The position numbers and the translations under genes are program-made. A stretch of DNA of 64,000 bases from Leptolyngbya ohadii IS1 (GTDB lineage Bacteria; Cyanobacteriota; Cyanobacteriia; Elainellales; Elainellaceae). Below the pieces are notes generated by a model. That model was not told where the DNA came from. It made no database searches and saw nothing but the letters and a program-made list of their open reading frames with translations. The number at the start of each line of letters is the position of its first letter. Position 1 is the stretch's first letter. The stretch covers positions 125,726-189,725 of the forward strand of contig NZ_NKFP01000004.1 of assembly GCF_002215035.1 (NCBI RefSeq), in the 5' to 3' direction. This document shows positions 4,456 through 64,000 of this stretch, piece after piece.

Positions 4456-5337
4456 ATGTTTTTAGTCACGGGAGCCACGGGGGGATTAGGGCGGCGGATT
4501 GTCCGACTGTTGCGAGAGCGGGAGCAGCCTGTGCGATCGTTTGTGCGGCTGATGAGTCGCTACGGGGAACTGGAGCATCGGGGAGCAGAAATTTTTATTG
4601 GCGATCTGCGGCAGGAACGAGACATCCAAAAAGCCTGTCAGGGGGTGCGCTATGTGATCAGTGCCCACGGGTCTACAGCGGGCGATCGGAATGGAGCAGA
4701 GGCAATTGACTATCGCGCCAATGTGGACTTAATCGATGCGGCAAAGGCGGCAGGGGTGGAGCATTTTGTTTTCATTTCTGTGCTGGGAGCCGATCGCGGC
4801 TATGAGGATGCGCCGACGTTTAAGGCAAAGTGGGCAGTGGAGCAGTATTTGCGATCGAGCGGGCTAACCTACACGATTTTGCGTCCTTCTGGCTTTGCCT
4901 CAAATCTGATTCCCCTGGCGGAGCAGTTTAGCCAGACCGGAGTTTACCTGCTGATTGGCGATCCTCAGTCGCGCACTTCGATCGTCAGCACCGATGATCT
5001 GGCACGAATCGCGATCGACTCGATTCAGTTTGCGCCCAATGAAACTCTGGCGATCGGAGGACCAGAAATCCTGGAGCGACGCGAAATTCCCCAGATCTTC
5101 GGGCGGATTTTTCAGCGAGAGCCGATCGTTGTGAATCCTCCGCTGGCGGTGCTGGACGGGGTACGAACTTTGAGCGGATTTGTCAGTCCGACAACGCAAA
5201 AGGCACTGGGGACGCTGCGAACTCTCCTCGCGAACGAGTTTTATGTGAAACCCGCAGAAGTCGATCGGCTGGAGGCACAGTTTAGGTTTGAGTTGGAGAC
5301 GCTGGAAGGCTTTCTCAGACGATATGTGAGCACTTAG
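4456..5337 (+). CDS. NmrA-like / atypical SDR NAD(P)-binding protein
   Basis: 293 residues from the ATG at 4456, 7 nt after the acetyltransferase stop and preceded by GGGGTGA. The N-terminus carries the glycine-rich dinucleotide motif VTGATGGLGRRIV of extended or atypical short-chain dehydrogenases. The pattern HFVFISVLGAD ... KAKWAVEQYLRSSGLTYTILRPSGF is typical of the NmrA/Ycf39/divinyl-reductase-like group, in which some members are reductases and others are assembly factors. No specific substrate can be assigned. It ends 4 nt from the convergent DUF92 gene. Confidence 0.85.
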   Translation: MFLVTGATGGLGRRIVRLLREREQPVRSFVRLMSRYGELEHRGAEIFIGDLRQERDIQKACQGVRYVISAHGSTAGDRNGAEAIDYRANVDLIDAAKAAGVEHFVFISVLGADRGYEDAPTFKAKWAVEQYLRSSGLTYTILRPSGFASNLIPLAEQFSQTGVYLLIGDPQSRTSIVSTDDLARIAIDSIQFAPNETLAIGGPEILERREIPQIFGRIFQREPIVVNPPLAVLDGVRTLSGFVSPTTQKALGTLRTLLANEFYVKPAEVDRLEAQFRFELETLEGFLRRYVST

Positions 5338-8910: not shown

Positions 8911-10862
8911 CCCACTGCCAGACCTCGCTGTGCCTGCCGATCGCGAATGGTGTCCAGATTGCCCAGCGGAATGGCGGCGATGAGGTGCCTGGTATATTCC
9001 GTCTGGGGACGACGATAGATCGAATCCGCCGTGTCGATTTCCTCGATTTTGCCCCGGTTCATCACCATGATGCGATCGCTCATAAACTTCACCACACTCA
9101 AATCATGGGAGATGAAAATATAGGTGAGCTTGAATTCGTCCTGGAGTTCCTTCAGCAAATTCAACACCTGCGCCTGTACCGACACATCCAGCGCAGAAAC
9201 AGACTCGTCGCAGATGATGAACTTGGGATTCAGGGCTAACGCACGGGCAATACAGACTCGCTGCCGCTGACCGCCAGAAAACTCGTGGGGATAGCGATTG
9301 CTGAACTCCGGATTCAGACCCACCCGGTCGAGCAGATAAGACATGCGCTCCAGACGATCGCGCCGACCGTTGCCGACTTTGTGGATCATCAGGGGTTCCA
9401 TGATCGCTTCGCCGATCGTAATGCGCGGATCGAGGGAGCTAAACGGATCTTGGAAGATAATCTGCATTTCGCGCCGCAACTGCCGCAGTTTATCTCCGCT
9501 GAGGCGGGTAATGTCCCGGTTCTCAAACAGAATTTTGCCGGAGGTAGGTTTGACCAAGTGGAGCAGCGTTCGCGCCAGAGTCGTTTTGCCGCAGCCGGAC
9601 TCCCCTACTAAGCCGAGGGTTTCCCCTGGATACACCTGAAACGACACGCCATTCACCGCCATCGCAGACCGCTGTGCCCGCCCAAACATGCCGCGAATTG
9701 GGTAGCCCACCTGCAAGTTCTGTACCGACAAAATTGGGGGCTGTTCCTGAAGGGCGATCGTCCGCTGATGGTCTTCTTCCAGGCTAACTGCCGCATTCGA
9801 TCGCAACGCCTGATCCAGGCTCATCGGTTTCTCGCGAATCACCGTTTCCCCGTTCGCGTCGGTGGAGACTTCCATAAAGTCATTAATGGTCGGCAATACG
9901 CGCAGGCGGCGAGTCGGCTGGGGACGGCAGGCAAGCAGTCCTCTCGTATAGGGATGCTGCGGATTCGAGAAGATGTCCCACACGGAACCCGCTTCGACAA
10001 TCTTGCCGCGATACATCACCGCCACTTGATCCGCAATATCAGCAATCAGCCCCAGATCGTGCGTGATGAACATGATTGACATTCCCCGCCGATCACGCAG
10101 TTCCCGCAGCAGATCCAGGATTCGCGCCTGTACGGTGACATCCAGGGCAGTCGTAGGTTCGTCCGCAATCAGCAGCGACGGATCACAGGAAATTGCCATC
10201 GCAATCATCACCCGCTGAATCTGTCCGCCGGACAACTGGTGCGGATAGCGCTCCAGCATGGCGTGTTTTTGCTGATTCACCAGGTCATCAAGATCGCGAT
10301 CGCTCAAGCTTCCCTTCGTACTATTTTTTGTACTATTTTTTGAAGAATTAACGCCCGGATTTTCTTTCTGCCAGTTCTCGATCGCCTGCTGCCGCAGTTC
10401 CTCATCGCTGGGCAATAGCTTTACTTCCTGCAATAGCCCGATCGCCCGTCGCCGTGCCTCTGCTGGGGCAATATTCGGGTTGTGCTGCCGGATTGCCTCC
10501 GTAAGCTGAAAACCGCAGGTATAGACCGGATTCAGCGAACTCAGCGGCTCCTGGAAAATCATCGACACCTGACCGCCCCGGTAACGCTGCATTTGTTCCG
10601 GTGTGAGCGATCGCAGGTTCACGGCATCCTTATCAGGATCAGGCTGAAACCAGATTTCGCCGTTCGCCACCCGTCCGGGAGCGGGAATCAGCCCCATGAC
10701 TGCCAGCGATGTCACCGATTTGCCGGAGCCAGATTCGCCCACAATGCCCAGGGTTTGCCCGCGTTTCACCTGAAAGGAGAGGCCGTCTACGGCTTTGGCG
10801 ATACGATTGGCGGTCTGAAACTGAACGTGCAGGTTGCGAACGTCAAGCACAGTGTCATTCAT
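8907..10862 (-). CDS. ABC transporter ATP-binding protein with two fused ATPase domains (oligopeptide/dipeptide type)
   Basis: 651 residues, equivalent to DppD and DppF fused, as in GsiA/YejF. Domain 1 has Walker A GESGSGKS, signature LSGGQIQRV and Walker B LLIADEPTTALD. Domain 2 has Walker A GESGCGKTT, signature FSGGQRQRV and Walker B FIICDESVSALD. A typical peptide-transporter C-terminal signature (NPQHPYTRGLLACRP) follows domain 1. Domain 1 also contains an Asn/Ser/Lys/Thr-rich insertion (SSKNSTKNSTKGS) in the helical region. The membrane and binding subunits are not in this window, so this is an orphan ATPase. Confidence 0.93.
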   Translation of the reverse strand: MNDTVLDVRNLHVQFQTANRIAKAVDGLSFQVKRGQTLGIVGESGSGKSVTSLAVMGLIPAPGRVANGEIWFQPDPDKDAVNLRSLTPEQMQRYRGGQVSMIFQEPLSSLNPVYTCGFQLTEAIRQHNPNIAPAEARRRAIGLLQEVKLLPSDEELRQQAIENWQKENPGVNSSKNSTKNSTKGSLSDRDLDDLVNQQKHAMLERYPHQLSGGQIQRVMIAMAISCDPSLLIADEPTTALDVTVQARILDLLRELRDRRGMSIMFITHDLGLIADIADQVAVMYRGKIVEAGSVWDIFSNPQHPYTRGLLACRPQPTRRLRVLPTINDFMEVSTDANGETVIREKPMSLDQALRSNAAVSLEEDHQRTIALQEQPPILSVQNLQVGYPIRGMFGRAQRSAMAVNGVSFQVYPGETLGLVGESGCGKTTLARTLLHLVKPTSGKILFENRDITRLSGDKLRQLRREMQIIFQDPFSSLDPRITIGEAIMEPLMIHKVGNGRRDRLERMSYLLDRVGLNPEFSNRYPHEFSGGQRQRVCIARALALNPKFIICDESVSALDVSVQAQVLNLLKELQDEFKLTYIFISHDLSVVKFMSDRIMVMNRGKIEEIDTADSIYRRPQTEYTRHLIAAIPLGNLDTIRDRQAQRGLAVG

Positions 10863-11082
10863 GGTGTTTATTTAGCGCAGTCGGGGGCGATGCATGAAGC
10901 GGAGGATTAGCAGGATCTTAGCAAATCCTTCCTTCGTGGGGATGACTTATGGGTAAGCAAGCGATCGACTTCACCGCCTACCTCCTTAACGACAAATTGT
11001 TGCTTCGCGAGGATGGCTTATGAGTAAGGGCGACCCGAAAGCCGCCCCCACCAGATGTTTACCTTAATCTCAGGCTATTGAC

Positions 11083-51677: not shown

Positions 51678-52580
51678 ATGCTTGCCTCCACGCTGGAACT
51701 GATGGAAACCGCCCACCGGAATATCTATGCGATCGGCGCGTTCAACGTCTACAACCTGGAGGGGGTGCAGGCAGTCGTTAAGGCGGCAGAGGCAAATCGC
51801 AGTCCGGCAATGCTGCAACTCCATCCCAGTGCGCTAAAGTACGGCGGATCGCCCCTGGTTGCCCTGTGCTTAGAATCTGCGAAAAATGCCTCCGTGCCCA
51901 TTTCCGTCCACCTGGATCACAGCACCTCTGCTAGCGCCATCAAGCTCGCCCTGAGTGCCGGAATGAGTTCCATCATGGCGGACGGCTCCCACCTGCCCTA
52001 CGAAGAAAATCTTGCCTTTACCCGCGATATGACCGAGCTTGCCCACGCACAGGGAGCGATCGTAGAAGCCGAAATCGGCAGAATTAGCGGCACGGAAGAC
52101 GGACTATCAGTGTCCGAAAAAGAAGCTAAGATGACCGACCCGATCCAGGCAGGCGAATTTGTCCGCGCCACCGGAGTCGATGCCCTCGCAGTCACGATCG
52201 GCAATGTGCATGGCGAATACCGCAGCGAACCCCGCCTGGATTTCAATCGCCTCGTCCGCATCCGCGAAAGAGTAGGTCGTGTGCTGCTCGTCCTCCACGG
52301 TGCCTCCGGTCTACCCGCCTCCATGATCAGCAAATCGATCGAATTAGGCGTTTGCAAATTTAACGTCAACACCGAAGTCCGTCAGGCCTATATGACCACG
52401 ATTGGTTCCGATGTCTGCACCGCCGAAAAAGCCGACCTCCTCCCCTGCATGGAAGAATCGATCGCCGCCATGCAAGAAGTCATCACCGAAAAAATGCGTC
52501 TCTTCGGCTCCGCGAATAAGGCACATCTGCATGAAACTCCCTATGCCATGATGCTTGCTGCTCAGCGGTATCGGGGGTGA
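51678..52580 (+). CDS. Class II (zinc-dependent) ketose-bisphosphate aldolase family protein
   Basis: 300 residues. Zinc-site motifs are clear: SVHLDHS (His-x-x-Asp-His), NVHGEYRSEP, and VLHGASGLPASMI, with NVNTEVRQAY near the end. It is closer in size to GatY/KbaY/IolJ-type aldolases than to the larger (about 359 residues) main cyanobacterial FBP aldolase, so it may act on another ketose bisphosphate. AAGGA precedes the start. It is followed by a minisatellite. Confidence 0.87.
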   Translation: MLASTLELMETAHRNIYAIGAFNVYNLEGVQAVVKAAEANRSPAMLQLHPSALKYGGSPLVALCLESAKNASVPISVHLDHSTSASAIKLALSAGMSSIMADGSHLPYEENLAFTRDMTELAHAQGAIVEAEIGRISGTEDGLSVSEKEAKMTDPIQAGEFVRATGVDALAVTIGNVHGEYRSEPRLDFNRLVRIRERVGRVLLVLHGASGLPASMISKSIELGVCKFNVNTEVRQAYMTTIGSDVCTAEKADLLPCMEESIAAMQEVITEKMRLFGSANKAHLHETPYAMMLAAQRYRG

Positions 52581-52587
52581 GTGAGGG

Positions 52588-52785
52588 GTGGATGAGTGGA
52601 TGGGTGGATGAGTGGATGGGTGGATAGGGGAAGAGGGAGGTTGAAGGGTTGGAGTCGGGATGGAATTAGAGATCTGGAAGTCGATCGCCCTAAACGATCT
52701 CAATCTACTAGCACCCTGTATCCAAATACTTCATTTTCCACTCTTCCACCCATCCACCCATCCACCCATCCACTCCCCACTACCA
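52588..52785. repeat. Inverted pair of octamer minisatellites between the aldolase gene and def
   Basis: 52588-52628 carries about five copies of TGGATGGG/TGGATGAG and 52744-52785 carries the complement (CCATCCAC type). The two arms are about 115 bp apart and can pair into a long cruciform or transcript stem. The same octamer occurs inside the cobD-like gene. Confidence 0.8.
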
Positions 52786-52850
52786 GAGAACAGCCCAATT
52801 GATTAAGATAGAACTAGCGAGTAACAAAATTCATTGCGCCAAACGAGGTC

Positions 52851-53414
52851 ATGACAGCTCAAATCCCGGTTGAGAAAAAGAAATTAGAGAAGGCACCCCT
52901 GTCGCTGCACTATATGGGCGATCGTGTCCTGCGTCAGCCTGCAAAACGGTTTACCAAAATCGATGAGGAAACGCGGCGCCTGGCACGGCAAATGCTGCAA
53001 ACCATGTACACCGAAGACGGTATCGGATTGGCTGCACCTCAGATTGGTCTGAACAAGCAAATGATTGTGGTTGATGCCCAACCCGACGAAGCCGCAAACC
53101 CGCCGATCGTCCTGGTCAATCCGGTCATCACTGCTGAAAGCAACGACCTGTGTGTGATTCAGGAAGGCTGCCTGAGCATTCCGGGCGTATTTCTGGATGT
53201 GACTCGCTCAAAAGTGATTGAAGTGTCCTATAAGGACGAAACGGGAAGACCTCAGAAGCTACGGGCAGATGGTCTGCTGGCGCGGGTGATTCTGCACGAA
53301 ATCGATCACCTGAACGGAATTCTGTTTGTCGATCGCGTGGATAATGCGATCGCAATGAATCAGGAACTCGTGAAGCACGGCTTCTCTGTCAAGGATGTGC
53401 GGCAGATTAAGTAA
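52851..53414 (+). CDS. def: Peptide deformylase
   Basis: 187 residues with all three active-site motifs: GIGLAAPQIG, EGCLSIPG (metal Cys) and HEIDHLNGILF (metal His and catalytic Glu). It removes the formyl group from nascent proteins. The about 25-residue N-terminal extension is usual in cyanobacterial enzymes. It is followed by a strong terminator. Confidence 0.97.
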   Translation: MTAQIPVEKKKLEKAPLSLHYMGDRVLRQPAKRFTKIDEETRRLARQMLQTMYTEDGIGLAAPQIGLNKQMIVVDAQPDEAANPPIVLVNPVITAESNDLCVIQEGCLSIPGVFLDVTRSKVIEVSYKDETGRPQKLRADGLLARVILHEIDHLNGILFVDRVDNAIAMNQELVKHGFSVKDVRQIK

Positions 53415-53516
53415 ACCGCATCTCAGTGAATTGCATCTCAGAATGCAAAATTGGTAATGCGGAATTGAGGGGGAGATGCCATTTTTCACCCCCCATCTAG
53501 CCCAACTCAAGCAAAA

Positions 53517-53550
53517 GGCGGCACGAAATCACATTTTGCCGCCCCTTTTT
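53517..53550 (+). terminator. Rho-independent-type terminator after def
   Basis: GGCGGC and GCCGCC form a stem around a loop of about 15 nt, followed by CCTTTTT. It lies about 100 nt past the def stop. The A-run before the stem could make it partly bidirectional. Confidence 0.82.
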
Positions 53551-53619
53551 GTATAAAAATATTTCTGTGCTTGATTCTTGATCCCATTCTTCATTCTCTG
53601 ATCGGAGGTAGGATTTCTC

Positions 53620-53823
53620 GTGACTCCAATGACTGCAAAAAGTGGCGTGCTGCTGGCTGGTTCCTGTGTAGCGGCGATCGCTGCCGTAGGTTCTGTCTTT
53701 GAGCTTTCGTCTGGTACGCCTCAATTGGGCACTGTAACGACCAGCATTATCCTGGCACTTGCCGTCCCACTCACCGCTATTTTCTTTGTCGCAGCCGTCC
53801 AGGATGCCAGAGCGAATCTGTAA
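53620..53823 (+). CDS. Small two-helix membrane protein of unknown function
   Basis: 67 residues from a GTG at 53620 with CGGAGGTAGGA upstream; an ATG at 53629 is also in frame. Two hydrophobic segments (GVLLAGSCVAAIAAVGSVF and SIILALAVPLTAIFFVAAV) are joined by a short polar loop, and the tail is QDARANL. No family is recognised. It has its own ribosome site and lies after a terminator, so it is probably monocistronic. Confidence 0.65.
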   Translation: MTPMTAKSGVLLAGSCVAAIAAVGSVFELSSGTPQLGTVTTSIILALAVPLTAIFFVAAVQDARANL

Positions 53824-53916
53824 AGACCCATTATCAAAACAACCATCAGCATAAAACAACCATCAGAATCAATCCGTGAGCGGCTGTCGCCCTATCTACC
53901 CTGACCCGTCTCCAGC

Positions 53917-55266
53917 ATGACCGGATCTCGTTCTGCTTCAGCTTTTCTTAGACAGGTTTACTCCCACGATCCGGCGAATTCCTCGATCGCCTACGTTCTA
54001 GCGACCCCGACCAGTGTGCTGATTGGGCGAGATCCCCGCTGTCAAATCATGTTGGATTCCCAGGTCTATGGCGGTGTGTCGCGGCAGCACGTTCGCATCT
54101 GTCCTTCTGCGGTTTCACCCTCTGGCTGGGAAATTTGCGACCTTAATAGCGCCAACGGAACCTATATCAATGGGCAGCGGCTTCAGGGATGCCGTTTCCT
54201 CAGACATGGCGATCGAATTGCGCTGGCAAAGGAAGGGGCGCAGTTTATCTTCGAGATGGCGCCTGCGGCAAAACCACCGGACGAAAGATCCGTTTTGCCC
54301 ACCTTACCCTCGTCGTCCAGAATGCCCATCGTGCCGCCTGATCCGGTAACGATGAGCCAATTGTTTCCCATCCTGTCAACCGGACGAGATTTGCGCCACA
54401 AGGCATACCTGCTTCCTGCGGTGCTGACGGTTTCATTTGTGGTGCTGATGTTTCTGTCGATCGGACAGCCAGGACTGTTTAACGTGCTGCTGGCAGGCTA
54501 TATTGCGGCGATCGCCTATTATTTTGTCTACCAGCTTTGCGGCAAACAAAAGCCGTGGTGGGTTCTGCTAGGAACAGCTCTTACGACTGCGGTGCTGTTG
54601 CTTAGTCCGGTGCTGCCGCTCTTTCTATGGTTTTTTCGGGAGCTACTGCCGGGGCGAATTCCCAGTCCGGGCGAAGCCATTCCCCTGCCGCTGCTGCTGC
54701 TGCAAATGCTGTTTGGGGCAGGGCTGATGGAAGAGCTGCTGAAGGCAATTCCGGTGCTGGGGGCAATGTGGCTGGGCACCAAGCTTCGATCGCCCTACCG
54801 CGAACAAATTGGAGTCTGGGAGCCATTGGACGGCATTCTGCTGGGGACGGCTTCCGCTGTCGGGTTTACCCTCATGGAAACGCTGGGGCAATATGTGCCA
54901 GGAATTATTAACGATGTGACCCTGCAAGCTGGGGCGGAATTTGGCGAACTGGTGGGGCTTCAGCTTTTGATTGCGCGGCTGTTGGGGTCGATCGCCGGAC
55001 ACATGGCATATAGCGGATATTTGGGATACTTTATCGGCTTAAGCGTTTTGAAACCGACCCAGCGCTGGCAAATTTTGGGAATTGGCTATCTCACTGCGTC
55101 AGTGCTGCACGCCCTCTGGAATGCTTCCGGCATGATTAACCTGCTGGTGCTTGCCGTGGTGGGAGTCATTTCCTACGCTTTTCTGGGGGCGGCTATTCTC
55201 AAAGCCCGTTTGCTTTCACCCACGCGATCGCAGAATTTCGCTACTCGCTTCTTTCGATCGCCCTAG
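53917..55266 (+). CDS. FHA domain fused to PrsW-type intramembrane protease
   Basis: 449 residues. The FHA domain (about 25-115) has the phosphothreonine-binding pattern GRDPRC, SRQH and NSANGTYING. Seven to eight transmembrane helices follow (about 163-435) with the PrsW signature EELLKAIPVL (Glu 272-273), ETLGQYVPG, HMAYSGYLGYFIG and SVLHALWNAS, which supply the conserved Glu and His residues of these glutamic-type proteases. The FHA domain would recruit a phosphorylated partner to the membrane protease. Confidence 0.88.
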   Translation: MTGSRSASAFLRQVYSHDPANSSIAYVLATPTSVLIGRDPRCQIMLDSQVYGGVSRQHVRICPSAVSPSGWEICDLNSANGTYINGQRLQGCRFLRHGDRIALAKEGAQFIFEMAPAAKPPDERSVLPTLPSSSRMPIVPPDPVTMSQLFPILSTGRDLRHKAYLLPAVLTVSFVVLMFLSIGQPGLFNVLLAGYIAAIAYYFVYQLCGKQKPWWVLLGTALTTAVLLLSPVLPLFLWFFRELLPGRIPSPGEAIPLPLLLLQMLFGAGLMEELLKAIPVLGAMWLGTKLRSPYREQIGVWEPLDGILLGTASAVGFTLMETLGQYVPGIINDVTLQAGAEFGELVGLQLLIARLLGSIAGHMAYSGYLGYFIGLSVLKPTQRWQILGIGYLTASVLHALWNASGMINLLVLAVVGVISYAFLGAAILKARLLSPTRSQNFATRFFRSP

Positions 55267-55542
55267 GAACTGCCGTTCCAGTTTGGGATCTGTCCTCCTC
55301 GAGGGTGGGCATCCTGCCCTTCCATCAGATGAAGACACGGCACAGTCTCGGTCATCAATTCAATTATTCTGCTCAGTTGGTCTGCGATCTCTAGGAACTC
55401 CAGCCTGCTCATTGGAGCAAGTTTCATCAATTCACAAAATCAATTCAAATCGATTCAAGAAATTAATCTACGAAATCCATCCACTCGGTCAATTAACGAC
55501 TGCAATAATCCACTGTTGGCAATCGCAACCTGACGGAGCAAT

Positions 55543-56151
55543 CTATTCTGCCTGGGCTTCGTTGGCTTCAGCGATCGCACAGCGGGCAGCAGCGAGGGCA
55601 ACACGGGCTTGCTCAATGCTCGATAGCTGTTCCCAACCCTTGCCTTCCAGCGTTTCAACTGAGGTTTCCAGCACTTCTGCATCCTGACTGCTTCGCATTG
55701 CAAAAGCATAGGGACGGGCAAGCACCTGTAAATCTTCCTCTGCCCAGGCGGGTAGACAGGACTGCACGCACTGCACCAGCTGGTCTGCCAGCGAATCACC
55801 TGAAGCAATCACCTGACGGGCACGGCTGACGATCGTATCCATGAGCTGCTGGGGCATTTGGGGAGTCATCTGCTGGAGCAGTCCGGCAAAGCGAGAAGCC
55901 TGTGCCACGGGAGCGGCTGTCCACAGATTTTCGATCGTTGCACCTAACCGCTGTCCGGCTTCGGTCAATTCCGCTTCTGTCCAGCCTGCCTGAATCACTT
56001 CCTGCTCTAGCACGGCAAAATATGCCTCGGCTTCCGGCGCGATCGGATTCCAGGGATAGCTGGCGGTTTCTGCCAGAACCAGTTCCAGTAATTCAATTTC
56101 AGACTGAGCGCGGCGGGAAGCGGCTAAAGAACGGTTGTGATCGTGGGTCAT
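55543..56151 (-). CDS. Alpha-helical protein of unknown function
   Basis: 202 residues, acidic, largely helical (SEIELLELVLAETASYPWNPIAPEAEAYF ... ALAAARCAIAEANEAQAE). No signal peptide or membrane segment. I do not recognise a family. It lies between the FHA-PrsW gene (convergent) and the CHAT-FHA gene (same strand, 309 bp gap), so it may belong to the same locus. Confidence 0.7.
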   Translation of the reverse strand: MTHDHNRSLAASRRAQSEIELLELVLAETASYPWNPIAPEAEAYFAVLEQEVIQAGWTEAELTEAGQRLGATIENLWTAAPVAQASRFAGLLQQMTPQMPQQLMDTIVSRARQVIASGDSLADQLVQCVQSCLPAWAEEDLQVLARPYAFAMRSSQDAEVLETSVETLEGKGWEQLSSIEQARVALAAARCAIAEANEAQAE

Positions 56152-56460
56152 GGGTCTGCTCCTAAAAGACGGCTGAGTGAGAACTGTAAGTGAGAACTCT
56201 GTACGTTATCGTTTTCGTTACATAGGGCTACAGCAGCAGATCAGCCAGTTCCGCAAGTGGACTGAAATTTTTTTAGAAAAATCGTGTCATCCATTCGGAT
56301 GAAATGGTCATTCCCAGTCGGGTGAGGAGGACAATCCAAAAATTGGACGAGTCCAGCGGAACAATTGCGGCTGTTTCTGGTGTCGTTTAGCAGGTGTCTC
56401 ACGGTGATTTCTGTTAGGTTCCTTCTAGCCCCTGTCCGTCCGCCGCCGTTTATCCGCCAC
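56152..56460. other. Intergenic region with a small palindrome
   Basis: 309 bp upstream of the helical protein gene. It contains a palindrome around CCATTCGGATGAAATGG near 56290-56306. Nothing else is recognised. Confidence 0.45.
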
Positions 56461-58095
56461 CTAGACGGATTCCTCAATCACAAACTCTAACGCCTGACTG
56501 CGCGGATTGCCAAACTTTAGCTGAGTTCTTGACTGGAGCGCAATTTCCTCATGATGCACTTTGCGCCAGCCATCCCCGTTCAAAATCCAGGTGCCGTAGC
56601 GCGATCGATCCCGCAGCAGGTAGATTGGCTCCTGCGCTTCGTCGGAGGAATTGCGGCAGAAAATTTCGGCGTGTTCGCGGGAAACCCCGATATGCTGCAA
56701 CACGACATCGTTGCCTTCGCCCCGCCCGACGCGCATCATGCCGCCCCGCAGCGACCACATTTGATTCGGAGCCACCACCGATCGCAAATACGCCTGCGGA
56801 ATTTGCCGCCCCAGCCAGCTCGCACTTTGATCCGGGATTTCCGTCACGCCTTCGGTAAACGGACGAATCAGCTCCCCGTTAAATTCCGGGTGCATATAGA
56901 GGATGGGCAGCGTCCAGGCGGGATGGTTGAACTTAAACAGCATCAGCAAATGCTGACGGGCGATCGCAACGGCTTCGTCAATGGGCGATCGGTGTGCCAG
57001 TGCCTGGGCAAACGCCTGGATAAAATTAATTGCTTCCTGGTCGGTAATCGTGTCTCGCATCGCCAGCACCGCCGGAACGCCGTGGTGGATCAGCACCTCT
57101 GCCAGACTGCTGCGCGGAATCGTCTGCTGATCTCGCTGATCGGGCTGTGCCCCCCAGCAGGCATTAAACACCGCCAGTTTGACCTGACAGCGCACCAAAA
57201 CCTGTGCCAGTTCCGTGCCATTAATTGCCGCATCGGGACGGAGGAACAGCAAGCCACCATCAGGCGCAGGCGCACCGTGCCCGGAGTAGAACAGAACGTT
57301 ATAGTTTCCCGATTCCAATTCCTGAATCAGTTCGGCGGGAGTCGGCTGCACCAGAGTTGTCACCTGGCAGGAGGCATTGCCGCTAAAGGGATCAACATCC
57401 GCCGCTGTTTCCAGCACCTTGGACAGCGTTGCCGCCTCCTGCTCCAGTGCCAGTCGCGCCTTAGGGATGACAGATGGATCGTAGTCTCCGATATCCGAAT
57501 CCTGCCCCAGGACTAAAAGAATTCTGAGGGACTGCTCCGATCGCAGAATCGGCAGGGGATCAACATCGCTCGTGGTGCGGCTGAACAAAAGCTGCTGGCT
57601 CAGGGAAACCGCCTGCCGTCCGGGCTGGGGCTGCATAATTTCCCAGGGCAGACCGATTAAGTCTGGATCGCGAATATCAAGCCGCAGGCGCAGGGGACGA
57701 CTTTGCCCTCTGGCAATGCCCTGGCTCTGGTCAAAGCTGCTCTGAATCGAGCCGTCGAACACCCACTGCCACAAACTCACCCCCAGACTTTGCATTAGCC
57801 TTGCGGAGTAGGAGGTTGGCTGACCCGCAGCAGGAGGAGCCGTCACTTCGGGATTAAAGTCCGGCAGCGGCGGCAGATCAAACATGTGGGGCGTGTGGGG
57901 CACACTGGGCAGCGATCGCGACGGAAAAAAGTTCTGCCAGGCTTGCCAGATTTCGCTAAGCTGCTGCGGCCAGAGGCGATCGTGATGCACAAAACCGCCC
58001 GGATATGGCGCGTTCCACACCCAGATCGCATAGTGTTGCGGGGCGGCAGCCGTAGAACGGGAGATTGCTAAACTGAGGCAAGGATTGTCAGGCAT
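56461..58095 (-). CDS. CHAT domain (caspase-like) protein with C-terminal FHA domain
   Basis: 544 residues. The CHAT peptidase domain (about 130-410) has the catalytic pair: His 273 in FYSGHGAP and Cys 313 in VFNACWGA. The C-terminal FHA domain (about 448-535) has MRVGRGEGNDVV, SREHAEIF and the GTWILNGDGW core. CHAT proteases are caspase relatives used in bacterial death, TPR-CHAT and defence-type systems. The FHA domain points to phosphothreonine control. The first 18 codons and the upstream DNA are duplicated in inverted orientation at 58679-59049. Confidence 0.9.
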   Translation of the reverse strand: MPDNPCLSLAISRSTAAAPQHYAIWVWNAPYPGGFVHHDRLWPQQLSEIWQAWQNFFPSRSLPSVPHTPHMFDLPPLPDFNPEVTAPPAAGQPTSYSARLMQSLGVSLWQWVFDGSIQSSFDQSQGIARGQSRPLRLRLDIRDPDLIGLPWEIMQPQPGRQAVSLSQQLLFSRTTSDVDPLPILRSEQSLRILLVLGQDSDIGDYDPSVIPKARLALEQEAATLSKVLETAADVDPFSGNASCQVTTLVQPTPAELIQELESGNYNVLFYSGHGAPAPDGGLLFLRPDAAINGTELAQVLVRCQVKLAVFNACWGAQPDQRDQQTIPRSSLAEVLIHHGVPAVLAMRDTITDQEAINFIQAFAQALAHRSPIDEAVAIARQHLLMLFKFNHPAWTLPILYMHPEFNGELIRPFTEGVTEIPDQSASWLGRQIPQAYLRSVVAPNQMWSLRGGMMRVGRGEGNDVVLQHIGVSREHAEIFCRNSSDEAQEPIYLLRDRSRYGTWILNGDGWRKVHHEEIALQSRTQLKFGNPRSQALEFVIEESV

Positions 58096-58410
58096 TGAAA
58101 GGGACGAAATTCAAGACCCAGATCGAAGACACACAACCTATCTTTACCAGTCTATCTGGTCTGGTCTGTTCCGTTGAATTGGATTTAGGCATGGGCGGCA
58201 TCGAGCAGAGATGAGGTGAATGGGGATTCATGGGGATCACGGACTAGGGCTGGGCTGAGCAGCAGGAGGACAATCGGCGCGATCGGGAGGCACATCCAGA
58301 GCCACAAGCGGCAGCAGATCGGCTTCGCGTAACCAGCCTTCCTGTCCGGGCTGTACAGGCGGAGGGGAAGCAATAACCTGGACTCCATTTTCCGTCTCAG
58401 CAGGCGGGTC
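58040..58410. repeat. Inverted repeat 1, left arm (371 bp)
   Basis: It matches the reverse complement of 58679-59049 over its full length in every stretch I compared, including the CHAT start codons and upstream DNA. The spacer is 268 bp. Confidence 0.88.
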
Positions 58411-58687
58411 AGCCGTTGGGGAACCGAGGGGTAGGCTGGAGGACGAGCTGGGAGGCGGTACCGTAATGGGCACCGAACAGACCCGAAGCTGCACCCACTG
58501 GTCGGCGGCTGTCGTGCCCTGTTTTTTCAGCACTGACAGAATACTGCCCTCTGGAATCGAGCCGATCGCCTCCAAGGGAGAATCAGATTGAACGGGGGGC
58601 GGGGAGAAAGGCTGAACAGGTGCAACAGCCTGAGTGGGAGTACCAGACAGCCCTGCTTCACGGTTTGGACTGACAGCCGACCCGCCT
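58237..58687 (-). pseudogene. Detached SH3-like C-terminal fragment of the PP2C gene
   Basis: Read on the minus strand, an open frame without a start begins GGSAVSPNREAGLSG, repeats a segment of the intact phosphatase, and continues into SDSPLEAIGSIPEGSILSVLKKQ and EGWLREADLLPLVAL, the later strands of a bacterial SH3-like domain. The first strand (NTLVRIR) is still in the phosphatase at 59417-61762. I infer the two were one continuous C-terminus, separated by the rearrangement described at 58040-60104. Confidence 0.65.
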
Positions 58688-59049
58688 GCTGAGACGGAAA
58701 ATGGAGTCCAGGTTATTGCTTCCCCTCCGCCTGTACAGCCCGGACAGGAAGGCTGGTTACGCGAAGCCGATCTGCTGCCGCTTGTGGCTCTGGATGTGCC
58801 TCCCGATCGCGCCGATTGTCCTCCTGCTGCTCAGCCCAGCCCTAGTCCGTGATCCCCATGAATCCCCATTCACCTCATCTCTGCTCGATGCCGCCCATGC
58901 CTAAATCCAATTCAACGGAACAGACCAGACCAGATAGACTGGTAAAGATAGGTTGTGTGTCTTCGATCTGGGTCTTGAATTTCGTCCCTTTCAATGCCTG
59001 ACAATCCTTGCCTCAGTTTAGCAATCTCCCGTTCTACGGCTGCCGCCCC
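58679..59049. repeat. Inverted repeat 1, right arm (371 bp)
   Basis: Mirror of 58040-58410. It carries a second copy of the CHAT upstream region and start codons, now on the plus strand, and overlaps inverted repeat 2 by 11 bp. Confidence 0.88.
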
Positions 59050-59263
59050 CACGACGACGGCACAAACTCAGCTTATTCCGCGCAAATCATCCCGTCCTCG
59101 CCTGCTCCCCTGGGTTGTGATGCTGGCAATTTTGTCCGGCTTGGGCGTTGCTCTCTACCCGCTACTTCAGGAGGCTTTGGGCAATAGACAGACCGCAAGT
59201 AATTCTGACCCCCTGCCCCCCCCCCTCCCCCCCCACCCTACCCCTCGGTTCCCCAACGGCTGA
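58994..59263 (+). pseudogene. Chimeric ORF: CHAT start fused to the phosphatase membrane segment
   Basis: An 89-codon frame. It begins with the first 19 CHAT residues (MPDNPCLSLAISRSTAAAP) and then switches to the phosphatase segment TTTAQTQLIPRKSSRP with its transmembrane helix. The switch lies in 11 bp shared by both sources (coding AAAP). It sits behind a copied CHAT upstream region, so it could be transcribed. It is probably a rearrangement by-product. Confidence 0.55.
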
Positions 59264-59268
59264 CCCGC
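59039..59268. repeat. Inverted repeat 2, left arm (230 bp)
   Basis: Exact reverse complement of 59412-59641, including identical C10-T-C8 homopolymers. The spacer (59269-59411) is itself a direct copy of part of 58261-58403. Confidence 0.88.
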
Positions 59269-59443
59269 AGCAGGAGGACAATCGGCGCGATCGGGAGGCA
59301 CATCCAGAGCCACAAGCGGCAGCAGATCGGCTTCGCGTAACCAGCCTTCCTGTCCGGGCTGTACAGGCGGAGGGGAAGCAATAACCTGGACTCCATTTTC
59401 CGTCTCAGCAGGCGGGTCAGCCGTTGGGGAACCGAGGGGTAGG
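59267..59443. repeat. 177-bp direct repeat of 58259-58435
   Basis: Offset 1008 bp, same orientation, identical where compared. It includes the SH3-like coding segment. Its left edge lies within a 21-bp sequence also found inside the CHAT gene at 57818-57838. Confidence 0.85.
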
Positions 59444-59641
59444 GTGGGGGGGGAGGGGGGGGGGCAGGGGGTCAGAATTACTTGCGGTCTGTCTATTGCC
59501 CAAAGCCTCCTGAAGTAGCGGGTAGAGAGCAACGCCCAAGCCGGACAAAATTGCCAGCATCACAACCCAGGGGAGCAGGCGAGGACGGGATGATTTGCGC
59601 GGAATAAGCTGAGTTTGTGCCGTCGTCGTGGGGGCGGCAGC
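59412..59641. repeat. Inverted repeat 2, right arm (230 bp)
   Basis: Mirror of 59039-59268. It contains the last codons of the phosphatase frame and the G8-A-G10 tract. Confidence 0.88.
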
Positions 59642-61762
59642 AGGGCGAGACTGAAGGATCAGCGATTTAGGAGATGCGGCGATCGGTGTACCGGAGGCAG
59701 TGGAACTGGGAGCGGCAGGGCGAATTCGCACCAGGGTATTGACCGCCAGCGAAGTCGGGGCAGCATTCGGGGCAGCATTCGGGGCAGCAGATGTGGCGAT
59801 CGAGGGAGTAGGCAGGGGGTCAGAATTACTTGCGGTCTGTCTATTGCCCAAAGCCTCCTGAAGTAGCGGGTAGAGAGCAACGCCCAAGCCGGACAAAATT
59901 GCCAGCATCACAACCCAGGGGAGCAGGCGAGGACGGGATGATTTGCGCGGAATAATTCGAGTTTTTGCCGTCGTAGTCGGAGGCGCAGCAGGTTCAGCAA
60001 CGGGCTGGGTTGGCGGCGAGGGGAAAAGCTGAACAGGTGCAACAGCCTGAGTGGGAGTACCAGACAGCCCTGCTTCACGGTTTGGACTGACAGCCGACCC
60101 GCCTATGGCGGCAGCGCGGAGCGAGCGATCGCCGGGATACTCTCCAATTACCGGGACAGCAGACTTTTGCGCCACCTGGCAGGACAGCAGACCGACCGTA
60201 ACATTATCGTAGCCATTGCGCGTATTACCCACGTCGATCAGGTTACGGCTTACGGTTGGCAGATTGGTTTTACCATCCAGCACCGGAAGAATTTCCGTAT
60301 CCCAGACTTCCTCGACGCGATCGTTATCGCACAGTCCATCGGAGCAGAGGAGAAACACGCTGTCCTCATCCAGCAGGAATCGCTGCACGGTTGGATAGAG
60401 CATCGATGAACCCACCATGCCCAATGCCTGTACCAGTGCCCCTGCGCTCGGCTGCTGAAGTGCCTGCCGATAGGTGCTGTAGCCCAGCCGGACTTCCCGT
60501 GAGGCAATATCGTCATCGACAGTGATTTGATGGCAGCCCCAGCGAGTAATCCAGTAGGCGCGGCTGTCACCAATATGGGCAATGTAGATCTCATGATGCC
60601 GCACGAGGGCAATCACGATCGTCGTTCCCATCCGCTGGCGATCGAAGCGCTGTTCGCTGTCGTTGCGTTCGCTAATCAAATCATTGGCAAGGCAGGCGGC
60701 TTTTTCGAGTTCAATCGTGAGGGTTGCCGCATCGAGGGTTTCGGGCTGGAGGGAAAGAATTCGCTGGGAAACGGCTTCGATCGCCAGATGGGACGCCACA
60801 TCGCCGCCCTGATGTCCGCCAATCCCATCGCACACGATCACGAACGGCAGGGAGTTTTTCGACGGCTCGGTACCGCTTGCCGGATAGCAGGCATCCTCAT
60901 TACGGGGGCGGGTTGGTCCCTGATCGGTGCGGGTGGCAACCTGGATGCGATAGGTTTGGGACTGGGCAACCTGGGCGATCGCCCAATCGAGCTGTGTAAC
61001 AATCTGTTCTGGGTTGTGAAGATTGCCCGAAATGATCTGCTGACAGAGGCTCTGAAGGAATCCCCGAATTTCCGATCGGGCGGTATCTGTCCAGGTGAGC
61101 CAGGTTTGCCCCAGCTGTGTCAGGGTTGGCGCTGTCCGATCGCTCTGAAGCTCCAGGATTCTCAGCAGTCCGCCTTCGACGCGCAGCAGTTCGGCATTTA
61201 ATAGCGTAGAAGCACATTGCTCCTGGCTGAGGGGCTGCCAGAGCTGCACGATTTGCCAGAGCCAGTGAAGCTGCCGAAACGCATTTGTGGATTGCCACAG
61301 TTGCAGCAGGCTGGGAAACAGCAGGACTTCCTGATCGGAAGAGCTAGCAGGCTGATCCGCCGGAGGCAAAACCTCTTCCAGACTGTCGGGGCGGTAAAGC
61401 GGCACCTGATCCAGCAGCAGCAGTGTATTCTCTGGCGTGTATTCCGTCGTCGCAGACTCAAACTGAAGCCAGTCATAAATCTGCGGTAGATGAAGCGGAT
61501 AAGCAGACAGACGCAGGTAAGCCAGCAGCGGGGCAGGAACCTCCGCAAAATTTACTGGGGACAAACCGGGTTTACTGTCCAGAAAAATTCGCGATCCCTT
61601 ACACAAAAACCGATCGCCTAACACGTCCCCTGCCTGATACGCTGACGCCATTGTCCCCACTGCCCAAAGGTAGCGACGCAGGAGCGGGGTTCGGCATTTC
61701 TGGCAAAACCGATGGGTTTCTGGATTGGGAGTCTGACAGATCGGATTAGGACAGTAGAGCAT
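59417..61762 (-). CDS. PP2C-type protein phosphatase, membrane-anchored; C-terminus rearranged
   Basis: 781 residues as read. An N-terminal zinc ribbon (Cys 4, 9, 20, 23) is followed by an about 200-residue helical region and a PPM/PP2C domain (about 272-526) with TDQGPTRPRNEDA, VCDGIGGHQGG, HIGDSRAYW, LCSDGLCDN and GYDNVTV, all metal-binding Asp positions present. A Pro/Ala linker leads to a transmembrane helix (613-632) and the first SH3-like strand (NTLVRIR). A duplicate of the transmembrane helix follows (729-748), and the frame ends in a C10/C8-encoded Pro tract. The end is likely not the native one. It dephosphorylates Ser/Thr, plausibly opposing kinases that create FHA ligands. Confidence 0.85.
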   Translation of the reverse strand: MLYCPNPICQTPNPETHRFCQKCRTPLLRRYLWAVGTMASAYQAGDVLGDRFLCKGSRIFLDSKPGLSPVNFAEVPAPLLAYLRLSAYPLHLPQIYDWLQFESATTEYTPENTLLLLDQVPLYRPDSLEEVLPPADQPASSSDQEVLLFPSLLQLWQSTNAFRQLHWLWQIVQLWQPLSQEQCASTLLNAELLRVEGGLLRILELQSDRTAPTLTQLGQTWLTWTDTARSEIRGFLQSLCQQIISGNLHNPEQIVTQLDWAIAQVAQSQTYRIQVATRTDQGPTRPRNEDACYPASGTEPSKNSLPFVIVCDGIGGHQGGDVASHLAIEAVSQRILSLQPETLDAATLTIELEKAACLANDLISERNDSEQRFDRQRMGTTIVIALVRHHEIYIAHIGDSRAYWITRWGCHQITVDDDIASREVRLGYSTYRQALQQPSAGALVQALGMVGSSMLYPTVQRFLLDEDSVFLLCSDGLCDNDRVEEVWDTEILPVLDGKTNLPTVSRNLIDVGNTRNGYDNVTVGLLSCQVAQKSAVPVIGEYPGDRSLRAAAIGGSAVSPNREAGLSGTPTQAVAPVQLFPSPPTQPVAEPAAPPTTTAKTRIIPRKSSRPRLLPWVVMLAILSGLGVALYPLLQEALGNRQTASNSDPLPTPSIATSAAPNAAPNAAPTSLAVNTLVRIRPAAPSSTASGTPIAASPKSLILQSRPAAAPTTTAQTQLIPRKSSRPRLLPWVVMLAILSGLGVALYPLLQEALGNRQTASNSDPLPPPLPPHPTPRFPNG
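59463..59607. repeat. 145-bp direct repeat (copy 1) in the phosphatase gene
   Basis: Identical to 59811-59955 at an offset of 348 bp (116 codons, in frame). It duplicates the transmembrane segment of the phosphatase. Confidence 0.9.
59811..59955. repeat. 145-bp direct repeat (copy 2) in the phosphatase gene
   Basis: Partner of 59463-59607. It encodes RKSSRPRLLPWVVMLAILSG and the following helix. Confidence 0.9.
60028..60104. repeat. 77-bp direct repeat of 58611-58687
   Basis: Offset 1417 bp, same orientation. It codes for SAVSPNREAGLSGTPTQAVA in the phosphatase. The second copy belongs to the detached C-terminal fragment. Confidence 0.88.
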
Positions 61763-62005
61763 TGCTGCGGCAGGATGAGAAAAGCCAGAAATTCAGCATT
61801 CCTCTCAGGATAACCTAGCCCCCTATACAGTAGCGAATTTGAGATGTTTTCTTAGCAGGATTGCGATCGATCTCCCCAAACTGCCCCCAGATCAAACCAC
61901 CTTAAGAGCAAGCATCCTTCAACAAAACAGGGCGGACAAGCTGCCCACCCCATCAGATCTTCTGGAAATAATTGGCTGCTTATATCTACAGCGATTTACA
62001 GCTAT
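61763..62005. other. Short region between ndhM and the phosphatase gene
   Basis: About 240 bp, A+T-richer than its flanks. It should hold the phosphatase promoter. Nothing else is seen. Confidence 0.45.
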
Positions 62006-62368
62006 TTACTTGATTGCCAGGTGATTGTCTGCGTCTTCGTCGGAGTAGCGGGGCATGCCGAGACTAAAGTTCTTCACGCGGCTATTCAGGTTGTAGGACA
62101 CTTTGCCCGCCATGAGCAGCGATCGAATAAAGTGTTCCAGATCTGACCCAATGCGGCGCAGGTTGTAGTTGGTTAAATCCTGACCTTCGTATGCCGCCAC
62201 GAGGCTTTCAAACCGCTGATACACCTCCTGGAGGGCAGCATCGTTCCATTCCAGTTCGTTATCAGGATCGATGTCCAGGGTCAGCTTGTCTTCCGACTCA
62301 ACTAATCCGTCATTCTCAACTTCTGCCGTAAAAATACGGACATGGCGGGTTGTACACTTGAGCAGCAT
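62006..62368 (-). CDS. ndhM: NAD(P)H-quinone oxidoreductase subunit M
   Basis: 120 residues, the usual length. It begins [20 protein letters not shown] and contains [18 protein letters not shown] and [22 protein letters not shown], the family signature. NdhM is an oxygenic-photosynthesis-specific subunit of the NDH-1 complex in the thylakoid membrane arm, needed for cyclic electron flow and respiration. It is encoded alone. Confidence 0.97.
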
Positions 62369-63004
62369 AAAACGCAGTCCACAGGAATTATTATCGCTAT
62401 CGTTATCTTACAGGCTTGCCGGAACGATCGCCGAACGGTCTGCCCTGGTTTGGTGCGATCGGAGATAAAAATCCGCTCAAGACCTGCTGAAAGCCTGCTG
62501 GCAAGGGATTGTAAGGCGATCGGTTCAATGTTCAGGATTGCTGATGAGTTCAATTAACTGCTGCAAATCTTCTGTCAGTTGAAGCGTCTGAGATGTAGCG
62601 GTGGCGATGGAAATTGGCAGATTCCTTGAGGTGAGAGATTCGCCTTGCCGGACTGTATTAGCTGCCTCATCTTAAGTAAATGCCTCATTTATTTACTTTA
62701 GAATCATCGACTTTAGCAGCATCGGAGGAGCGAGCAAATCAAGGGTGCCCAAAATTTTGATGAATCAGCCAAACCATTGTACTCAGGGAAAACTGAGGAT
62801 GGAACCGATCGCATTCCAATTTCAATTTCTCTTCAAGAAAAACTGTGGAATTAGTCAAGTGTTGATTGCATATCATCAAATCCGCAGCGTTTGTCCTGCA
62901 TAAAAACTAGAATAGGCAAGGCAACCCGTAGCAATGACAGCCCGAAGAACTCCATTCAGAGGTTGAGCTTGAGATTTTCAGATGGCTTGTCAGGCTACAG
63001 GACA
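62369..63004. other. Divergent intergenic region
   Basis: About 635 bp between ndhM and the DUF4230 gene. It is A+T-rich around 62660-62900. The frames within it are unsupported. Both promoters are probably here. Confidence 0.5.
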
Positions 63005-63943
63005 ATGAAACCTACCGAGGGTGTGATGGAGCGCGACGAGTCGCAACAGAAGTCCTGGGTTGATCTTCCGGCTCGCATGCCGACTCAACCGCAGCCGTTA
63101 TCCCAGCCGATCGCTCAAACAATTTCCCCGCCAAAGACCAAACCGCAGAAGGGCAATTACTGGCAGCGGCAGAAACGCTCATCTCTTTGGGGCGCGGCGA
63201 AGCCGTCGGGCAACTGGATGGATCTGCTGAAGAATTTGTCCTTTCTGACCGCAAGCAGTCTCAGCCTGGTAACGGTGCTGGTCGTGCTGGGCATGGTGCG
63301 ATCGGGGACAGATTCTCTGGGAAAAATATTTGGCGTGGTAACTGCGCCTCAGCCTGCTCCCAAGGTAGACGTGCGATCGGCGGTGGTACAGCAGGTGCGG
63401 GGCGTAAGTGAGTTGACAACTGCCGTATTCGCGATGCAAACCGTTGTGCCGACCAGCCGGGAAAGAACTGTGGGTGGCTTTGTGGTGGGCAAAACGACGC
63501 TGCTCTACATTGGCTATGGCGAAGTGCGTGCCGGACTGGATCTGTCTTCCCTGACTCCCGATGCGGTGCAACCCCAGGGCGATACGCTGCTAATCCGTCT
63601 GCCGCCGCCCCGAATTCTAGACAGCAAGCTGGATGTCAACCGATCGCAGGTGTATGACTACGATCGTGGATTTATGGGTATGGGACCGGATGCGGCTCCG
63701 GAACTGCAAGAATTAGCGCAGCGCAAAACCCTGGAAAGCCTGGTGCAATCTGCCTGCAACGAAGGACTGCTGCAAACCGCAAACGATCGTGCCCGTCTTG
63801 CTGTGGGTCAGTTGCTCTCGACATCGGGATATCGTCAGGTGACGATCGAAACCCAACCGCCTGCTAGTGATGCCTGTCCGCCGCCCGTGGCTGTGCCTGA
63901 AGGGGAATCTCTGCCTCCGGTTCCGGCTGTGCCTTCGCCTTAA
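63005..63943 (+). CDS. DUF4230 domain-containing membrane protein
   Basis: 312 residues from the ATG at 63005, with AGGA just before it; the ATG at 63026 is an alternative and the frame is open to 62891. A Pro/Gln-rich cytoplasmic part is followed by one transmembrane helix (LSFLTASSLSLVTVLVVLGMV, about 80-100) and a DUF4230 domain (about 125-285: SELTTAVFAMQTVVPTSRERTVGG ... KTTLLYIGYGEVRAGLDLSSL ... LLIRLPPPRILDSKLDVNRSQVYDYDRG). The function of the family is unknown. The tail is Pro-rich. Confidence 0.85.
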   Translation: MKPTEGVMERDESQQKSWVDLPARMPTQPQPLSQPIAQTISPPKTKPQKGNYWQRQKRSSLWGAAKPSGNWMDLLKNLSFLTASSLSLVTVLVVLGMVRSGTDSLGKIFGVVTAPQPAPKVDVRSAVVQQVRGVSELTTAVFAMQTVVPTSRERTVGGFVVGKTTLLYIGYGEVRAGLDLSSLTPDAVQPQGDTLLIRLPPPRILDSKLDVNRSQVYDYDRGFMGMGPDAAPELQELAQRKTLESLVQSACNEGLLQTANDRARLAVGQLLSTSGYRQVTIETQPPASDACPPPVAVPEGESLPPVPAVPSP

Positions 63944-64000
63944 AGATCTAGGATTAAATGCTCTGCAATAGGGGGAGAGATCCTGATTGGGCAAGGAAGA

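What the first reader, a model, noticed from the sequence alone, without database searches (positions are those of the whole stretch)
58040..60104. Nested inverted and direct duplications scrambling the CHAT/PP2C intergenic region
Two large inverted repeats, 371 bp (58040-58410 with 58679-59049) and 230 bp (59039-59268 with 59412-59641), overlap with direct repeats of 177, 145 and 77 bp. Breakpoints lie in short shared sequences (11 bp at 59039-59049, 2-7 bp elsewhere). Copies look identical even in homopolymer lengths, so the event is very recent or is a library/assembly artefact (inverted chimeras with microhomology are typical of multiple displacement amplification). If real, it is a template-switching rearrangement of a signalling gene and a possible source of population variation.
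Basis: partly seen in the sequence, partly recalled or inferred. Interest (0 to 1): 0.8.

Follow-up and report, generated by a model that had tools for sequence, protein, structure and literature searches.

The report
Scrambled assembly patch, not real DNA
The nested mirrored and repeated copies in this cyanobacterial gene are most likely a mistake made when the genome was assembled, because similar patches recur across this assembly, one of them cuts the start off a gene the cell should need, and the joins pile up at an overlap of exactly ten bases.

Summary
The repeats are in the sequence as described: inverted 371 and 230 bp, direct 177, 145 and 77 bp, all exact. The sister FACHB-502 has one 864-aa PP2C gene followed by CHAT. 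In the window about 1 kb of shuffled local copies breaks that gene. The locus is not special. In 81 sampled stretches of this assembly (1.66 Mb) there are 23 clusters of local exact repeats, 17 with inverted copies. The sister gives 0 in 0.4 Mb, and two single-contig relatives give 0 inverted in 0.4 Mb. Elsewhere such a cluster removes about the first 43 codons of the only purH found, and another the first five residues and upstream region of the only pdxJ. Nine spacer-less perfect palindromes reach 1020 bp. Among 48 neighbouring copy pairs the commonest overlap is exactly 10 nt (11 of 48); published MDA chimeras peak at 6 nt. I conclude an assembly or gap-closing artefact, with MDA chimeras second and in-vivo template switching unlikely. 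I had no raw reads and found no assembly method. A by-product, a telomere resolvase gene in each arm of a palindrome of at least 15 kb, deserves follow-up.

The parts
59417..61762 (-). Truncated PP2C phosphatase ORF (781 aa) that runs into scrambled copies: its second TM segment is a copy, its last ~20 residues a C-rich tail in another frame than the domain end it replaces
   Evidence: ORF; Pfam PP2C_2 1.9e-11; sister ORF is 864 aa and continues into a C-terminal domain
58237..58594 (-). Detached C-terminal domain of the same gene (SH3-like by my reading; no Pfam hit), matching sister residues 743-853
   Evidence: tblastn E 1.7e-29 at 58590-58270; no Pfam family at E<=0.01 for the 112-aa ORF
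56461..58095 (-). CHAT + FHA domain gene next to the patch, full length relative to the sister
   Evidence: Pfam CHAT 1.7e-20, FHA 5.9e-12; 544 aa here, 543 aa in sister L030 8754-10385
58679..59049 (+). Inverted copy of 58040-58410 (CHAT start, intergenic stretch, end of the C-terminal domain), 371/371 identical
59039..59268 (+). Inverted copy of 59412-59641 (TM segment plus C-rich tract), 230/230 identical; joined to the previous copy by 11 shared nt
59267..59443 (-). Direct copy of 58259-58435 (C-terminal domain end), 177/177 identical
59463..59607 (-). Direct copy of the TM-coding stretch 59811-59955, 145/145 identical, with a similar but not identical ~38-nt flank
59444..59462 (.). G-rich (C-rich on the gene strand) homopolymer tract that no exact copy of the presumed originals explains
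58611..58687 (-). Direct copy of 60028-60104 (PP2C linker), 77/77 identical; joined to the 371-nt copy by 9 shared nt

Best explanation
The patch is an assembly artefact. A hard-to-read, Pro/C-rich linker of the PP2C gene was probably a gap or weak spot in the assembly. Software filled it by chaining local sequence from both strands wherever about 10 nt happened to overlap, so mirrored and direct copies of sequence within ~1-1.5 kb stand there and part of the linker is missing. Shown here: the copies, the sister's intact gene, the recurrence in this assembly, the loss of needed coding sequence at another patch, and the 10-nt mode. Inferred: that the step was gap closing or overlap joining, and that the linker was the cause.
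For: Recurrence in this assembly: 17 inverted clusters in 81 stretches (1.66 Mb) against 0 in 20 sister stretches (0.4 Mb) and 0 in 20 stretches of two single-contig relatives (0.4 Mb). At the own rate (16 clusters, telomere-like palindrome left out) none in 0.8 Mb has a chance of 5e-4, and none in each 0.4 Mb 0.02. Of nine clusters compared with the sister, seven have collinear flanks on both sides. The only purH hit starts at sister residue 43 (residue 44) and its MGS domain is matched only from profile position 34 of 94. The only pdxJ starts at sister residue 6 and faces an inverted copy of itself. Nine spacer-less perfect palindromes of 78-1020 bp. Overlap mode exactly 10 nt: 11 of 48 pairs; of 19 pairs with 10 nt or more, 11 are exactly 10 (58%), near the 56% expected for a cut-off at 10 with random letters beyond. 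GapFiller merges extensions by default at 10 nt or more (PMC3446322, passages).
Against: Four pairs overlap by 9 nt and nine by 0-7 nt, below a strict cut-off of 10; the 48 pairs are not all independent joins. GapFiller makes one merge per gap by its description, yet patches hold several joins, so that program is not shown. The partly similar flanks of some copies are unexplained. The sister is a 100-contig draft and may have dropped real inverted repeats. Two of the nine clusters, the purH one included, lie where sister synteny breaks, so a real rearrangement nearby is not excluded. pdxJ keeps an open frame of 294 aa through the join, so it may not be dead.
Confidence: 0.85

Rival explanations
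1. The scrambled molecules are chimeras from multiple displacement amplification or another library step that were built into the assembly.
For: Local inverted and direct joins with short shared sequence are typical; chimeric distance peaks at 250-300 nt (PMC4595205, passages); MDA long reads often carry multi-inversion palindromes (PMC13265396, abstract).
Against: MDA overlaps peak at 6 nt, most 5-8; here 3 of 48 lie at 5-8 and 15 of 48 at 9-10. Whether the DNA was amplified is unknown: no method description was found.
Confidence: 0.1
2. Real in-vivo template switching (microhomology-mediated, e.g. at breaks after desiccation) scrambled the gene, and many others, very recently; broken alleles may coexist with intact ones on a polyploid chromosome.
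For: Multi-step inverted and direct copies with short shared sequence fit such a mechanism; the strain is listed as from a biological soil crust, Nitzana, Israel (PMC8619395 table, passage).
Against: The only purH found lacks about 43 codons; no inverted pair below 89% identity among those of at least 50 nt in 61 own stretches; the 10-nt mode; spacer-less palindromes up to 1020 bp, which I recall are unstable in bacteria.
Confidence: 0.04
3. The inverted repeats are a programmed switch that flips the segments between the arms and varies the C-terminus of the phosphatase.
For: Long identical arms around 268 and 143 nt spacers.
Against: The sister locus L030 shows no such repeats; patches of the same kind occur at unrelated genes; the spacers are pieces of one ancestral gene. 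By eye I saw no recombinase among the ORFs at 52000-64000, but ran no family search for one.
Confidence: 0.01

Closest known systems
Gap-closing / overlap-joining assembly errors (e.g. by GapFiller-type tools)
   Same: Local sequence placed between intact flanks, true sequence missing, joins at a minimum overlap of about 10 nt
   Different: Several joins per patch; the program used for this assembly is not known
phi29 MDA chimeras
   Same: Inverted and direct local joins with short overlaps, multi-inversion structures
   Different: Overlap mode here 10 nt rather than 6 nt
In-vivo template switching (FoSTeS/MMBIR, fold-back inverted duplication; recalled)
   Same: Order and orientation of copies could arise this way
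   Different: A single-copy gene of purine synthesis broken, no clearly old diverged examples, 10-nt mode

Membership tests
Assembly / gap-closing artefact | Recurs across the assembly but not in relatives | tested here: met
   17 inverted clusters in 81 own stretches; 0 inverted in 40 stretches of three relatives. Direct-only clusters are not enriched: 6 of 23 own, 5 in G003+G008
Assembly / gap-closing artefact | Breaks genes the organism cannot do without | tested here: met
   Only purH found lacks ~43 codons; only pdxJ lacks its first 5 residues and upstream region but keeps an open frame. That the cell needs them is recalled, not tested
Assembly / gap-closing artefact | Joins show a software overlap threshold | tested here: met
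   Mode exactly 10 nt, 11 of 48; but 4 at 9 nt and 9 at 0-7 nt
Assembly / gap-closing artefact | No read supports the joins | not testable with these tools
   No reads available
MDA chimera | Join overlaps peak near 6 nt (5-8) | tested here: not met
   3 of 48 at 5-8 nt against PMC4595205
MDA chimera | DNA was whole-genome amplified | not testable with these tools
   No method description found
In-vivo template switching | Short microhomology at joins | tested here: inconclusive
   Overlaps present, but a mode of exactly 10 nt is unexpected
In-vivo template switching | Viable genotype; spectrum of older, diverged events | tested here: not met
   purH cut; inverted pairs of 50 nt or more are 89-100% identical
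Invertible DNA switch | Repeats conserved in relatives | tested here: not met
   Sister locus L030 has no such repeats
Invertible DNA switch | Dedicated recombinase nearby | tested here: inconclusive
   ORF list read by eye only; no family search made

The most novel reading that the evidence does not exclude
Leptolyngbya ohadii IS1, a desert-crust cyanobacterium, really carries some 75 very recent multi-switch scrambles, tolerated because intact copies of each locus persist on sister chromosomes of a polyploid cell, as a by-product of repairing breaks after drying.
Probability: 0.04. Interest if true: 0.85.

Novelty: not a real feature. Interest (0 to 1): 0.12.

Why it matters
If right, this reference assembly holds scrambled patches at roughly 75 places (16 in 1.66 Mb, scaled by me from a sample that was not random). 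Statements about gene loss, repeats or palindromes based on it need checking, purH and pdxJ included. The overlap-mode test offers a simple way to tell software joins from amplification chimeras and real microhomology events.

Tried and rejected
Considered a mobile element: the DNA search of the whole own genome found the long copies at this locus only, the eight other hits being 32-45 nt. Considered a hotspot peculiar to this gene: 71 related loci (915 kb) gave one inverted exact pair over 60 nt, at a contig end (L059), plus four palindromes of 40-54 nt. Considered G/C homopolymers as the cause at all patches: 3 of the 15 inverted clusters have no run of 5 or more; runs of 6 or more occur in 8 of 15 clusters against 392 of 1249 background windows of 1300 nt, but cluster lengths vary, so I draw nothing from it. 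Searches for how L. ohadii IS1 was sequenced gave nothing usable: listings, no paper. A search for papers on gap-closing palindromes gave nothing on point in its 12 listed titles. An earlier count said that no inverted pairs of 75-94% identity exist; that was imprecise, five pairs lie at 89-94%, as told in the report.

Full report
What is there. The search of the whole own genome found long copies only at this locus. The genome has 7,902,459 bases in 8 contigs, the same length as Leptolyngbya ohadii IS1 in a table of PMC8619395 (passage); I guessed the name first and then matched the length.

Ancestral order. The nearest relative, Cyanobacteria bacterium FACHB-502 (L030), has one 864-aa ORF (PP2C, TM, C-terminal domain), 158 nt, then the CHAT gene. 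In the window the order on the minus strand is: PP2C, linker, TM, second linker, a copy of TM, a C-rich tract, a copy of the C-terminal domain end, an inverted copy of TM plus C-rich tract, an inverted copy of CHAT start plus C-terminal domain end, a copy of the first linker, then the presumed original C-terminal domain and CHAT. Sister residues 728-742 have no counterpart, and the stretch matched up to 727 already runs into the TM copy. This is a variable Pro-rich linker, so the loss here is suggestive only.

Genome-wide control. I scanned 61 own stretches including the window (1.264 Mb): 21 clusters with inverted exact repeats of at least 40 nt within 3 kb or direct ones of at least 60 nt; 15 had inverted repeats and 12 had both kinds. 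A further 20 stretches (0.4 Mb) gave 2 clusters, both with inverted repeats: L265, a complex array not studied further, and L256, a long palindrome treated apart below. The stretches were chosen by position, contiguous on part of C4 and spaced on C1, C6 and C7, and about 15 kb is sampled twice. The sister gave 0 clusters in 20 stretches; G003 and G008, each a single contig, gave 5 direct-only clusters and 0 inverted in 20 stretches. Direct-only clusters are therefore no commoner here than in relatives; the inverted ones are what sets this assembly apart. The looser BLAST scan found one inverted self-match in the 40 relative stretches, 58 nt at 86% in L184. The 71 related loci (914,816 bases) gave one inverted exact pair over 60 nt plus four palindromes of 40-54 nt.

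Divergence. Inverted pairs of at least 50 nt in the first 61 own stretches ran from 89 to 100% identity. In the seven alignments I looked at, differences sat mainly at fading ends or in one gap. But an 82-nt pair in L112 (91%) and the 156-nt pairs in L124 (95.5%) carry seven mismatches each, and long matches in L123 and L143 carry 26 and 54, so not every copy is perfect to its ends. Near-perfect cores point either to one very recent burst or to no biological event.

Genes hit. Nine clusters were compared with the sister: eight with inverted copies and one (L143 16740-18014) with direct copies only. Seven have collinear sister flanks on both sides; two (L143 4053-4984 at purH and L137 15015-17875) sit where the two flanks match different sister contigs. 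One (L123 525-1618) leaves both neighbouring genes open. The other eight alter coding sequence relative to the sister: PP2C (window); about the first 43 codons of purH (L143 ~4907-4984); the first five residues and upstream region of pdxJ (L143 ~9582-10889); the end of a YgjP-like peptidase gene (L143 ~17050); the N-terminal part of an M23 peptidase gene (L137 ~7447); the end of an M48 peptidase gene (L137 ~17340); a 716-aa gene without a family (L123 5055-6232); and the end of a nicotinate phosphoribosyltransferase gene (L128 ~3639). The own genome gave one purH match (sister residues 43-518) and, for pdxJ, the gene plus its partial inverted copy; a stray 43-residue piece elsewhere might escape that search. 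The sister pdxJ ORF begins at a TTG-type start chosen mechanically, and the own pdxJ frame stays open into the inverted copy (294 aa), so purH is the stronger case. That a free-living phototroph needs both is recalled knowledge.

Joins. Of 48 distinct neighbouring pairs of copied segments, 11 overlap by exactly 10 nt, 4 by 9, 1 by 11, 2 by 12, 1 by 13, 2 by 14, 1 by 16 and 1 by 22; 9 lie at 0-7; 16 are gaps of 1-6 nt, some of which are single mismatches inside one copy rather than joins (L256 left out, L265 included). A few pairs describe the same place twice, so 48 overstates the independent joins. Without L265 it is 10 of 35 at exactly 10. By eye, five of the 19 overlaps of 10 nt or more are self-complementary. 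Random joins overlapped by 9, 10 or 11 nt in about 6 of 100,000 draws; the script's total for 9 nt or more was 0.37%, the rest of it at 39 nt or more, which I ascribe to draws at nearly the same point. Published MDA overlaps peak at 6 nt (PMC4595205, passages). GapFiller's default minimum merge overlap is 10 nt (PMC3446322, passages). I take the 10-nt mode as a software threshold, without naming the program. N runs of 361 and 5000 in own stretches could be scaffold gaps or masking by the operators, so I do not count them.

Verdict. Assembly artefact, most likely from gap closing or overlap joining (0.85). MDA chimeras 0.10, real template switching 0.04, programmed switch 0.01. The mends made on checking (nine, not ten, overlaps at 0-7; pdxJ weaker; N runs dropped; two clusters on synteny breaks) did not change these odds.

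By-product. L256 holds a perfect palindrome with arms of at least 7.5 kb centred at C1:916522/916523, with an AT-rich self-complementary centre. A copy of a 712-aa telomere resolvase gene (PF16684, 7.1e-45; protelomerase chains in the PDB, best 2.6e-4) lies in each arm. Near the centre the arm matches the last ~2.8 kb of contig C7 in two pieces (79% and 70%) and the first 1.35 kb of C2 (80%). A 10-kb query placed 102-112 kb left of the centre has no identical mirror copy. Resolvase hits occur in 12 of 24 genomes searched, the own one included; four hits (G001, G009, G011, own C2) start within 1 kb of a contig start. This fits linear replicons with hairpin ends, read through in the assembly; one paper says in passing that cyanobacteria have such ends (PMC3558466, passage).

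Noticed in passing
L256 13045-20000 (part of G000 C1:909001-924044): Perfect palindrome with arms of at least 7.5 kb and an AT-rich centre; each arm carries a 712-aa telomere resolvase gene (PF16684, 7.1e-45). The arm near the centre resembles the end of contig C7 (79% and 70%) and the start of C2 (80%), suggesting linear replicons with hairpin telomeres in L. ohadii.
   Followed up: partly
24 genomes (G000-G015, G025-G032): Telomere resolvase family PF16684 found in 12 of 24 cyanobacterial genomes, four hits within 1 kb of a contig start, and in the Synechococcus elongatus control genome (1 of 14 controls).
   Followed up: no
L143 4900-4990 and 9582-10889: In this assembly the only purH found lacks about 43 codons and the only pdxJ its first five residues and upstream region because of the same kind of patch.
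   Followed up: yes
L250 2501-7500; L140 12722-13082; L100 618-1725: Runs of 5000 and 361 N, and 44 mostly single-base N runs near the start of C4, in the own assembly; gaps or masking.
   Followed up: no
L123 2991-3032: A ~35-nt sequence near a synteny break with more than 20 matches of 83-94% scattered over sister genome G001, a possible dispersed repeat.
   Followed up: no
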